From assembly GCA_023246885.1 (NCBI GenBank), contig JAHFHN010000059.1:1-5914 (forward strand): a DNA stretch of 5,914 bases, read 5' to 3'. The translations under genes were made by a program, and so were the position numbers. Below, one piece after another: positions 2,867 through 5,560 of this stretch (positions are counted from its first letter, which is position 1; each line of letters opens with the position of its first letter). The stretch is from Microcaldota archaeon. GTDB taxonomy: Archaea > Micrarchaeota > Micrarchaeia > Norongarragalinales > UBA8480. The notes beneath the pieces were generated by a model, which did no database searches, was not told the DNA's origin, and saw only the letters and a program-made list of their open reading frames with translations.

Positions 2867-2875
2867 ACAAAAAGT

Positions 2876-2891
2876 TTTAATATATTTAAAA
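2876..2891 (+). promoter_or_regulatory. Strong TATA-like box upstream of the lipoprotein pair
   Basis: The 16-base all-AT tract TTTAATATATTTAAAA lies in the 40-base gap before the first lipoprotein gene. Its centre is about 23 bases from the ATG at 2907, with an A-rich stretch just upstream that could act as a BRE. No Shine-Dalgarno sequence follows. This is the best promoter candidate in the window and predicts a leaderless or nearly leaderless transcript covering both lipoprotein genes. Confidence 0.55.
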
Positions 2892-2906: not shown

Positions 2907-3722
2907 ATGAAGCTTATTTTATCCTTAATTGCAGCGGTTCTTCTTCTAAGTGGGTGTATAAATCCAGATAATGTAAATGTCGCTAGTAATTACAGTAACC
3001 AATCTGCAAGTAACATAAATTCTAATAACACAAGCAACATAGCACCACAAAATAACCAAAGTGACTCAATAACAAACTCAAGCAACTACGGCACAACTAA
3101 CGGCGGGGGAAGTACACCATATATATCCGGAACAACCGTAGGACCTTCTAATCCCAGCCGAGGTCAACCGGTTAACATAACCATTAGCGCAAAAGATACT
3201 GAAGGGCTTCAAGGGATATACTGGGAATCAAGCGATACGTTTACAACAAGCCCAGCATCAGCTTCTTTTGAATGCAATTCACAAACAACTTGTAACGTAA
3301 CCTGGACATTCACCTCAACTCAAGACGGACTAAAAACAATAAACGTATACGCAAAAGACTCTGGTGGACAAACCTCTTCAAAAACACCATTGCAAATAAC
3401 AGTTCAACCACGCGATTATCAGGTTCCAACAGGGCCAACTTGTGGCAATAACGTTTGCGAAAGCGGAGAAGCAGATAGCTGTTCAACTGACTGCCCAGCT
3501 ACAACAACCAATACAACCGGCGTTACAAATGATACGACGAGTGGACAAACTAGTTGTGAGTATAATTCACAGTGTACTGGTTTTAGACAAATTTGTTCTT
3601 CTGGACAGTGCATAGATGTCGAATGTACAAATAGCGGACAATGCGGGTTGCACGAGTATTGTTCTTACAACAGTTGTGTAAAATGCAGGAGAGATTACGA
3701 AACAGGCAACTGGGGCTGCTAG
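2907..3722 (+). CDS. Surface lipoprotein: Asn-rich stalk, Ig-like domain and C-terminal Cys-rich repeats
   Basis: A 271-residue predicted exported lipoprotein. Residues 1-17 are a signal peptide ending in the lipobox LLSGC, with Cys17 as the likely lipidated residue. Residues 18-70 are a low-complexity Asn/Ser/Thr stalk. Residues about 71-168 form an Ig-like beta-sandwich (NPSRGQPVNITISAKD, a Trp-centred strand, VYAKDSGGQ, LQITVQP) with a probable disulfide Cys123-Cys129. Next comes CGNNVCESGEADSCSTDC (179-196), then a Thr-rich spacer. The end (217-271) has ten cysteines: two units, C-x5-C-x6-C-x4-C (217-235) and C-x5-C-x5-C-x4-C (240-257), then Cys260 and the final residue Cys271. Sixteen cysteines follow the lipobox, an even number that fits full disulfide pairing outside the cell. 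Ten N-x-S/T sequons (residues 28, 31, 40, 41, 50, 57, 90, 130, 202, 208) suggest glycosylation if an archaeal AglB is present. The function is unknown; binding or adhesion is a guess. The next gene is a paralog starting 2 bases after the stop, so the two are probably co-transcribed. Confidence 0.88.
   Translation: MKLILSLIAAVLLLSGCINPDNVNVASNYSNQSASNINSNNTSNIAPQNNQSDSITNSSNYGTTNGGGSTPYISGTTVGPSNPSRGQPVNITISAKDTEGLQGIYWESSDTFTTSPASASFECNSQTTCNVTWTFTSTQDGLKTINVYAKDSGGQTSSKTPLQITVQPRDYQVPTGPTCGNNVCESGEADSCSTDCPATTTNTTGVTNDTTSGQTSCEYNSQCTGFRQICSSGQCIDVECTNSGQCGLHEYCSYNSCVKCRRDYETGNWGC
3102..3494 (+). repeat. Paralogous block, copy 1 (end of stalk, Ig-like domain, Cys motif)
   Basis: This block aligns without gaps to 4055-4447 at a constant offset of 953 bases. 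It encodes GGG, the Ig-like domain and the CGNNxCESGEADSCSTDC motif of the first lipoprotein. By hand alignment the 100 residues coded by 3117-3416 share 85 identities with the second copy, and 3257-3319 is identical over 63 bases. It is an internal gene duplication, not a mobile element: no terminal inverted repeats or target-site duplications were seen. Confidence 0.93.
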
Positions 3723-3724
3723 AA

Positions 3725-5560
3725 ATGAGGTCAATATTGCCTTTAATTGTGGTAGTTCTTTTTCTAAGCGGATGCATAACCCCTGAAGACGTAAATGTTA
3801 CTGTAAGTTATAATAATCAAACTACAAATAACGTATTTCCAAATAACCCTAATCCCCCAGCGACAAATGGTATATTGCCAAATAACCCCAATAATCCGAT
3901 TACTGCAAATACTAACGTAATTCCTAATAGTCAAAATACAAATAATACAAACGGCGCAGCAACCCTGGGCAATAGTGAAAACGATTCAATTAGAGACTCA
4001 AATAACGGCGACGATAATAATACCTTTGACGATAATTCTAATGTCAGTACAATTGGCGGAGGCGACCGCCCGTATATATCTGGAACAAGTACACGACCTT
4101 CTAACCCTAACCGGGGTCAACCGGTTAACATAACGGTTTCTGCAAAAGATACTGAAGGGCTTCAAGAGATATACTGGGAATCAATCGATACTTTTGCAAC
4201 TTATCCAGAATCAGCTTCTTTTGAATGCAATTCACAAACAACTTGTAACGTAACCTGGACATTCACCTCAACACAAGATGGACTAAAAACAATCAACGTA
4301 TACGCTACGGACTTTGATGGGCAAGTGTCTTCAAAAATGCCATTGCAAATAACCGTTCAACCACGCGATGCAATAGTCTCAACAACCGCCGTATGTGGCA
4401 ATAACATATGCGAAAGCGGAGAAGCTGACAGTTGTTCAACAGACTGCACAACCACAACCGCTAATACAATGAGCGTTGAGGATAGCACATTAACCGATAC
4501 GCCTAGTGAACCGCAAACGGAGGCTACTGAAAGCATACCGATCCCGCCAAATTCACTAGCGATTTATTATTTTGCGTCAATGGGTTCAGACTCCACCACA
4601 TTAAGATATGTTAATGTCATAGAGCCAGTGGGCGGAGGAGGCGTAACTGCAACGGGCATAATACCTCTTAGTGGAAATGTAGCCGATGTAGATGGCGTAA
4701 CGGTTTATCTAGGTCTGCCAACGTGGAACGCTGACAGTTATGCAGTTCTTGCATATATTCCAGCGTTAGACCGGACGCTTTTATTGGATAGAACTACTTC
4801 ATTTAGCTATTCAAGAAGCGTTTTGCAGGTTAAGACAAAAAACAATTTTGTCTTCTCACTTAGTGAACGAGGCGAAAGAAACCCCGCAATAGGGGAATTT
4901 GATGTTTTTCACCCTTTAAATGGCGATAAAGTGGGCTACGTATCGCTTTATCCACAGTCAGGCGCAGGCGGGTGGACAATTACTACCGATGGCTACTACT
5001 ATACCAATAACGGCTTATACAAACGTGCTTTTGATTCTGACAACTCAGTAAAACTTCTAGATAGTACGTCATCTTCGTACGGCGGCAGATTTTATGGCGT
5101 GGGAAGTAGGCTATTATCAGTAAAAAGTACGTACGTAACTGCAACGCAGTCATTTGACTATTTAATAAGAGAACACAGCACAAGCACTGGAGCAAAGACA
5201 CGAGATATAACTAGCTTTTCGCGCCCGTCATCCGTGAATGTAGAATTCTACGATGGAGATACCGCGCTTTATATGAGCACGCTTGAAACATCAAACTCTT
5301 ATAATGTTTATAAAATTGTAAATGGAGCACCAACACTTTTACTAAACGTAAGGCTAGGAACCGGAGAAACCGCTATAGGGAAAATTGATGAAACTAATGG
5401 CTATCTAATAATTCCAATTTTATCAAATGGCGATTCACGCATATTAACTTATAATTTAGCTACGGGTTCACAGCAACAAATGACTATTCCAAAAGAAGAC
5501 TTAATCGGCGCAGGTTATGCACTTGCAAGCGCAGAGTACCTTATGCTAAATCCACAATAA
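3725..5560 (+). CDS. Surface lipoprotein: long Asn-rich stalk, Ig-like domain and C-terminal probable beta-propeller
   Basis: A 611-residue predicted exported lipoprotein, paralogous to its upstream neighbour. The start at 3725 is chosen because it yields a clean signal peptide, MRSILPLIVVVLFLSGC, with Cys17 in the lipobox exactly as in the neighbour. An earlier in-frame ATG at 3641 would add 28 polar and basic residues and overlap the upstream gene. Residues 18-113 are an Asn-rich stalk, about 45 residues longer than in the neighbour. The Ig-like domain (116-213) has Cys168 and Cys174, and CGNNICESGEADSCSTDC spans 224-241. A Thr/Ser/Glu/Pro linker leads to residues 277-611, a beta-rich region of about seven segments of roughly 38-52 residues, each with strand-turn-strand character (for example DGVTVYLGLP, NNFVFSLSERG, DGYYYTNNGLYKR, NGYLIIPILSNGDSRILTYNLATG). 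This suggests a seven-bladed propeller, though no WD or YWTD signature is present. Eight sequons (24, 31, 73, 86, 98, 106, 135, 175) all lie before residue 180. The ligand or partner is unknown. Confidence 0.88.
   Translation: MRSILPLIVVVLFLSGCITPEDVNVTVSYNNQTTNNVFPNNPNPPATNGILPNNPNNPITANTNVIPNSQNTNNTNGAATLGNSENDSIRDSNNGDDNNTFDDNSNVSTIGGGDRPYISGTSTRPSNPNRGQPVNITVSAKDTEGLQEIYWESIDTFATYPESASFECNSQTTCNVTWTFTSTQDGLKTINVYATDFDGQVSSKMPLQITVQPRDAIVSTTAVCGNNICESGEADSCSTDCTTTTANTMSVEDSTLTDTPSEPQTEATESIPIPPNSLAIYYFASMGSDSTTLRYVNVIEPVGGGGVTATGIIPLSGNVADVDGVTVYLGLPTWNADSYAVLAYIPALDRTLLLDRTTSFSYSRSVLQVKTKNNFVFSLSERGERNPAIGEFDVFHPLNGDKVGYVSLYPQSGAGGWTITTDGYYYTNNGLYKRAFDSDNSVKLLDSTSSSYGGRFYGVGSRLLSVKSTYVTATQSFDYLIREHSTSTGAKTRDITSFSRPSSVNVEFYDGDTALYMSTLETSNSYNVYKIVNGAPTLLLNVRLGTGETAIGKIDETNGYLIIPILSNGDSRILTYNLATGSQQQMTIPKEDLIGAGYALASAEYLMLNPQ
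4055..4447 (+). repeat. Paralogous block, copy 2 (end of stalk, Ig-like domain, Cys motif)
   Basis: This is the counterpart of 3102-3494, in the second lipoprotein gene. Similarity stops after the Cys motif: the first gene goes on to a Cys-rich tail, while this one goes on to an acidic Thr/Ser linker and the propeller-like region. A weaker match also exists at the two gene starts (signal peptide, lipobox, and CINPDNVNV versus CITPEDVNV), so the whole N-terminal half was duplicated and the stalk then changed length. Confidence 0.93.

What the first reader, a model, noticed from the sequence alone, without database searches (positions are those of the whole stretch)
2907..5560. Tandem lipoproteins sharing one anchoring stalk but carrying unrelated outer modules
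Two lipoprotein genes 2 bases apart share lipobox, Asn-rich stalk, Ig-like domain (85 of 100 residues) and a Cys motif, then diverge completely: a ten-cysteine tail in one and a 335-residue propeller-like region in the other. The breakpoint is sharp, just after CESGEADSCSTDC. This looks like a surface-display scaffold whose terminal module is swapped after duplication, possibly one pair of a larger genome family. The two may also act together at the cell surface, given their apparent co-transcription.
Basis: partly seen in the sequence, partly recalled or inferred. Interest (0 to 1): 0.72.

Follow-up and report, generated by a model that had tools for sequence, protein, structure and literature searches.

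The report
Archaeal surface lipoprotein that captured a propeller
In an uncultured tiny archaeon, two neighbouring genes share the same predicted membrane-anchored stem but end in unrelated outer parts, one cysteine-rich and one predicted to be a beta-propeller, and because relatives carry that propeller on other anchors, the second gene likely arose by copying the first and capturing a new outer part.

Summary
Gene 1 (g1, 2907-3722) and gene 2 (g2, 3725-5560) share lipobox, Ig-like segment (85% identical) and one Cys motif, then part about 10 codons beyond it. The host is a Micrarchaeota MAG, 63% complete. The scaffold is found in full in 5 of 301 genomes of the class (8 copies): seven end in the ten-cysteine tail, only g2 in the propeller. 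At the syntenic place a same-genus genome has one gene, with a g2-like long stalk and a g1-like tail. The propeller (AlphaFold pLDDT 80, closest to solved beta-propellers) is in 4 of 301 genomes, elsewhere on other anchors: simple lipoprotein, membrane helix, or helix plus phosphatidylethanolamine-binding domain. A tail like g1's also sits on short lipoproteins without Ig. So g2 most likely arose by tandem duplication plus propeller capture. Unexpectedly, Ig segments group by locus but tails group by genome (AU test), suggesting tail exchange between loci; the synonymous-site support for this is mixed. One swap is supported; a family with many C-termini is not. Surface binding is inferred, not shown.

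The parts
2875..2882 (+). TATA-like box before g1
   Evidence: TTTTAATA at 2875-2882; two matches in the window are expected by chance, but a similar T/A-rich box (TTTTAATA or [C/T]TTTAAATA) lies upstream of all 7 scaffold genes other than g2 (by eye)
2907..3722 (+). g1: predicted lipoprotein with stalk, Ig-like segment, one Cys motif and ten-cysteine tail
2946..2957 (+). g1 lipobox LSGC (residues 14-17)
   Evidence: sequence
2958..3116 (+). g1 Asn/Ser-rich stalk, 53 residues
3117..3410 (+). g1 Ig-like segment
   Evidence: Pfam Big_7 and Big_13 below cut-off
3441..3494 (+). g1 Cys motif CGNNVCESGEADSCSTDC
3495..3719 (+). g1 linker and ten-cysteine tail module
3725..5560 (+). g2: chimeric predicted lipoprotein, scaffold of g1 plus propeller module
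3764..3775 (+). g2 lipobox LSGC
   Evidence: sequence
3776..4069 (+). g2 Asn/Thr-rich stalk, 98 residues, like the stalks of P0004 and the G002 gene
4070..4363 (+). g2 Ig-like segment
4394..4447 (+). g2 Cys motif CGNNICESGEADSCSTDC
4448..4537 (+). joint: Thr-rich linker, similar to g1 for about the first 30 bases
4538..5557 (+). predicted beta-propeller module, 340 residues, no cysteine

Best explanation
g2 joins the predicted anchor, stalk, Ig-like segment and cysteine motif of its neighbour g1 to a predicted beta-propeller that related archaea carry on other anchors, and it likely arose by tandem duplication of the g1-type gene followed by capture of that propeller in place of the cysteine tail. 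Shown by the sequences: shared scaffold, two unrelated ends, a single scaffold gene at the same place in a same-genus genome, and both ends present on other N-termini elsewhere. Inferred: the order of events; that both proteins are lipid-anchored outside the cell; that they are made from one transcript; and that the ends are outward binding modules (a disulfide-held knob on g1, a ligand- or partner-binding propeller on g2), so that the duplication let one anchor display two binding modules. Also inferred, less firmly: the cysteine tails of the two scaffold loci are homogenised by recombination within a genome, with breakpoints near the same linker.
Against: Host MAG is 63% complete, so copies may be missing; the pair is known from one contig. 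No donor is identified: the closest propeller is a 217-residue fragment at 62% identity (P0014). Propeller G+C (0.415; GC3 0.326) is ordinary for the window, so composition gives no sign of recent import. The Ig tree of g1, g2, G002 and P0004 is unresolved (supports 22 and 44), so the time of duplication is uncertain. Tail exchange rests on 16 informative sites (12 genome, 3 locus, 1 other; synonymous-only 3 against 2); synonymous identity of g1-C16 rises from 0.49 in Ig to 0.79 in tail (P 0.003) and the contrast with g1-G002 gives P 0.03, but g1-G002 itself does not fall (0.64 to 0.69) and the G002 pair rises only at P 0.08. No function was tested.
Confidence: 0.66

Rival explanations
1. The pair is older than the genus and G002 (and perhaps P0004's genome) lost the propeller gene.
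For: Duplication time is unresolved in the Ig tree; only 3 genomes of the genus are held and one (G001) lacks the scaffold altogether at E 0.001.
Against: G002 and P0004 have the g2-type stalk with the g1-type tail in one gene, which simple loss of g2 does not give; g1 and g2 Ig segments are closer at synonymous sites to each other than to G002 (dS 0.34 against 0.64 and 0.74), though gene conversion could do that too; no propeller in 28 other genomes of the order.
Confidence: 0.17
2. g2 is an assembly or binning artefact that joins a scaffold copy to an unrelated propeller gene.
For: Short contig (5914 bases) of a 63%-complete MAG, with two 87%-identical stretches that could mislead an assembler.
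Against: Both flanks of the pair match the G002 locus in order and orientation; g2 is one open frame across the joint, its base composition does not change at the joint, and the two scaffold copies differ throughout (87% DNA identity in Ig).
Confidence: 0.06
3. The propeller module is an enzyme or a folding or lipid-handling partner of the envelope rather than an outward binding module, as its fusion to a phosphatidylethanolamine-binding domain in P0002 and P0012 might suggest.
For: PBP-domain fusion; Foldseek's first row is tetrathionate hydrolase and several rows are prolyl oligopeptidase propellers, though TM-scores are low.
Against: The solved propellers it resembles differ widely in function, so the fold tells nothing; 14 positions are invariant in the 9-row alignment A7, and I recognised no catalytic set among them (not tested further).
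Confidence: 0.25
4. The tails look alike within a genome because of shared selection, not recombination.
For: Few informative sites; synonymous-only counts 3 against 2.
Against: dS of g1-C16 falls from 1.34 (Ig) to 0.53 (tail) while that of C16-B10, its orthologue pair, rises from 0.38 to 0.90; AU test p 0.005; P0004, a locus-1 type gene, has a tail closest to that of C16 (48 of 55).
Confidence: 0.3

Closest known systems
Surface-layer proteins of the Micrarchaeota-type archaeon Mia14 with PKD-fold and beta-propeller domains fused to a CARDB-like module (PMC5498576; passages and section 14 read)
   Same: Secreted proteins of small archaea combining Ig/PKD-like and predicted propeller domains, proposed there to serve cell-cell contact.
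   Different: Mia14 proteins are described as surface-layer proteins with Kelch/YVTN repeats and CARDB, not as a short lipoprotein pair with one shared scaffold; the g2 propeller matches no Pfam propeller family above cut-off. No sequence comparison with Mia14 proteins was made by name.
Polymorphic toxin systems (PMC3482391; search listing and start of abstract seen)
   Same: One N-terminal carrier with exchangeable C-terminal modules made by recombination.
   Different: Neither end was matched to a toxin family (g1 end: no match above cut-off, g2 end: none), no immunity gene was recognised next to it, and there are only two kinds of end.
Domain rearrangement and allelic exchange in surface proteins of Porphyromonas gingivalis (PMC5266723; abstract and outline seen)
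   Same: Surface-protein modules exchanged so that parts of one gene have different histories.
   Different: A bacterium and strain-level exchange; here exchange is between two loci and across genomes of one archaeal genus, on much less data.

Membership tests
Beta-propeller | Closed ring of four-stranded blades | tested here: inconclusive
Known propeller family (Pfam) | Match above the curated cut-off | tested here: not met
   g2: no propeller family listed at E up to 1; relative P0002: Peptidase_S9_N 18.1 bits against 24, Beta-prop_NWD2_C 15.6 against 33.
Bacterial Ig-like domain (Big_7, Big_13) | Match above the curated cut-off | tested here: not met
   Big_7 15.0 bits (g1), 17.4 (g2), 20.5 (P0007) against 24.1; Big_13 15.9 (g1) against 27. 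Profile against PDB sequences: best E 0.12. Fold not predicted, so Ig-like remains likely, not shown.
DUF7107 (PF23416) for the cysteine tail | Match above the curated cut-off | tested here: not met
   17.5 bits (g1), 18.9 (P0009), 18.5 (P0007) against 24.6.
Prokaryotic lipoproteins | N-terminal signal with lipobox cysteine | tested here: met
   LSGC at residues 14-17 in both; by eye a lipobox-like GC in all 8 scaffold copies. NCBIfam lipoprotein models all below cut-off.
Prokaryotic lipoproteins | Lipid attached and protein on the outer face | not testable with these tools
   needs biochemistry
   Two kinds of end in 8 copies over 301 genomes; own genome incomplete.
   Propeller on other anchors; tail on short lipoproteins.

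The most novel reading that the evidence does not exclude
The linker behind the Cys motif is a standing recombination joint of a small cassette-type display system in Micrarchaeota: outer modules (ten-cysteine tail, propeller) are exchanged between loci and genomes behind conserved lipid-anchored stems, letting these archaea re-equip their contact surface without changing the anchor. Three junctions fall in or beside it: the propeller joint of g2, the start of the g1-C16 tail match, and the start of the G002 tail match, which takes in the last Cys motif.
Probability: 0.2. Interest if true: 0.66.

Novelty: new variant of a known kind. Interest (0 to 1): 0.42.

Why it matters
How tiny, likely host-dependent archaea diversify the proteins with which they touch other cells is largely open. 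Here one can see a single capture event with its single-gene counterpart in a related genome, both modules found elsewhere on other anchors, and a hint that the other module is passed between loci. It names three uncharacterised modules (scaffold, ten-cysteine tail, propeller) that can be expressed and tested for binding. The principle, modular surface proteins rearranged by recombination, is known from other organisms.

Tried and rejected
First structure model from 5 sequences had pLDDT 59.9 and was replaced by one from 9. Structure search gives only the fold: rows are Kelch, TolB, LRP6, ROS1 and other propellers; TolB- or LRP6-like function is not claimed, and that the rows include LRP6-Dickkopf complexes is treated as coincidence. 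Profiles of the Ig segment and tail found no significant solved relative (best E 0.12 each). The sigma-70 scan does not fit an archaeon and was at chance. Literature: six searches listed no paper on these proteins; the library is open-access only.

Rows dropped: G134 (E 8e-4, part of the Ig segment in a 974-residue frame); G007:C6 (E 5e-5, motif region in a 2670-residue frame). In one search the tail profile rang in 31 of 301 genomes; I followed the five with the scaffold plus G138 and G143 (E 1e-16, 7e-15) and did not read the other 24 (E 1e-8 to 9e-4, short Cys-rich stretches). Searches scored only the 7996 and 7989 candidates sharing most words. In one search the stalk/Ig border of the G002 gene was set too early, so its stalk figures are not used (one search replaces them); the Ig figures there compare all 87 codons. 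G001 has no scaffold hit; beside its 44%-identical membrane-protein gene lies another gene, no lipoprotein.

Full report
What is there. The window is one contig (C51) of a 0.77-Mb MAG, 62.9% complete. It belongs to Micrarchaeota: same-class genomes G107 and G047 have contigs of the same lengths as records titled Candidatus Micrarchaeota archaeon, and the homologue P0007 is named so. g1 (2907-3722) and g2 (3725-5560) follow a gene with a C-terminal PEP-utiliser mobile domain (1451-2866; PF00391 E 2.4e-26) and face a small membrane-protein gene on the other strand. Both start with a lipobox, then an Asn-rich stalk, a 98-residue Ig-like segment (85% identical), one Cys motif, and unrelated ends.

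The own genome and its relatives. A third copy lies on contig C16 (L013:4429-5394): lipobox, Ig-like segment, three Cys motifs, ten-cysteine tail. A profile of the Ig segment over 301 genomes of the class matched 6 at E 0.001; one (G134) is a partial match of E 8e-4 and is left out. The other five hold 8 copies: three here, two in G002 of the same genus, one each in G007, G014 and G017. Seven end in the tail, with ten cysteines in each of the seven, behind one to four Cys motifs. Only g2 has the propeller. In a set of 5.8 billion proteins, g1 had 8 hits including itself and the C16 copy.

The propeller module. Four of 301 genomes have it, none of them among the 96 genomes that are at least 90% complete and at most 5% contaminated (the phylum search covered 301 genomes too). 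G107 has two genes 30 bases apart: a 366-residue protein with an N-terminal hydrophobic stretch and a Pro-rich linker, and a 555-residue protein with such a stretch, a PBP domain and the propeller; G047 and G114 have simple lipoproteins. A profile search of the large protein set added P0012 (PBP domain), P0013 and P0015 (simple lipoproteins) and the fragment P0014, 62% identical to g2. None of these has the Ig scaffold, as read by eye. The module therefore existed on at least three other kinds of N-terminus. AlphaFold with nine sequences gives pLDDT 80.0 and pTM 0.80, with residues 23-60 unreliable; the solved chains that align best are beta-propellers. This is a predicted fold and says nothing on ligand or activity.

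The tail module. Besides the seven scaffold copies, the tail profile finds a 115-residue lipoprotein with one Cys motif (G138, L068:1345-1692) and a 106-residue lipoprotein with none (G143, L069:1375-1695). The tail profile also rang weakly in 24 further genomes that I did not inspect.

How g2 arose. In G002 the same flanking genes enclose one scaffold gene. That gene and P0004 have the long stalk that g2 has and the tail that g1 has. The simplest course is tandem duplication of such a gene, after which g1 kept the tail and shortened the stalk while g2 kept the stalk and took the propeller. The order is inferred. g1 and g2 Ig segments are closer to each other (dS 0.34) than to G002 (0.64, 0.74), but the protein tree of g1, g2, G002 and P0004 is not resolved. 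Artefact is unlikely since matching DNA lies on both sides of the pair.

Tail exchange between loci. For g1, C16 and the two G002 genes (B19 at the g1 locus, B10 like C16), the Ig segment groups by locus: 74 informative sites against 1 and 1. The tail groups by genome: 12 sites against 3 and 1. With three outgroup genes, the AU test rejects the genome tree for Ig (p about 1e-44) and the locus tree for the tail (p 0.005). Synonymous identity of g1 and C16 is 0.49 in Ig and 0.79 in the tail (bootstrap P 0.003), and C16-B10 goes the other way, 0.81 to 0.63. Against this: only 5 synonymous-only sites (3 to 2), no fall for g1-B19 (0.64 to 0.69), and P 0.08 for B19-B10. I read this as probable, not proven, recombination between loci.

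Function. Inferred only. Lipobox plus stalk plus Ig-like segment suggests a stem that carries an outer module away from the membrane; sequons (10 in g1, 8 in g2) would allow glycosylation. g2 starts 2 bases after g1 and lacks the T/A-rich box seen by eye upstream of the seven other scaffold genes; that box is not more than chance in the window by itself. One transcript is likely. Propellers and Ig/PKD-like domains in the surface layer of Mia14 were proposed to serve cell-cell contact (PMC5498576, passages and section 14), which makes contact or polymer binding the most likely role here.

Verdict. A real, neat case of module capture in a surface lipoprotein of an uncultured archaeon; new in its parts, familiar in principle.

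Noticed in passing
window:1451-2866; L013:5391-6443 and 6470-7927 (minus strand): Proteins with a PEP-utiliser mobile domain (PF00391) are strongly and patchily expanded: 13 here, 16 in G002, 14 in G001, 1 to 19 in the 29 genomes of the order. Those read in this window and on C16 lack other Pfam domains above cut-off. Both scaffold loci of this genome lie beside such genes.
   Followed up: partly
L039:7283-8383 and 8414-10081: G107 carries two propeller genes in tandem, 30 bases apart, one with a phosphatidylethanolamine-binding domain in front of the propeller.
   Followed up: partly
L013:5391-9109 and L027: The glyA-like gene beside the second scaffold locus is only 48% identical between this genome and G002 and stands in the opposite orientation relative to the lipoprotein gene, while the Ig segments of that locus are 83% identical.
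   Followed up: no
P0005 and P0009: The protein set lists the same longest contig length (27694) for both G002-type scaffold proteins, which might mean that the two loci lie on one contig in another assembly.
   Followed up: no
L029, L028, L030 and L013 scaffold genes: The Cys motif comes in one to four copies of distinct types in a fixed order; g1 and g2 keep a first-type copy and the syntenic G002 gene a last-type copy, as if arrays had shrunk in different ways.
   Followed up: partly
window:25-660: ORF of 211 aa with no Pfam match above cut-off.
   Followed up: no
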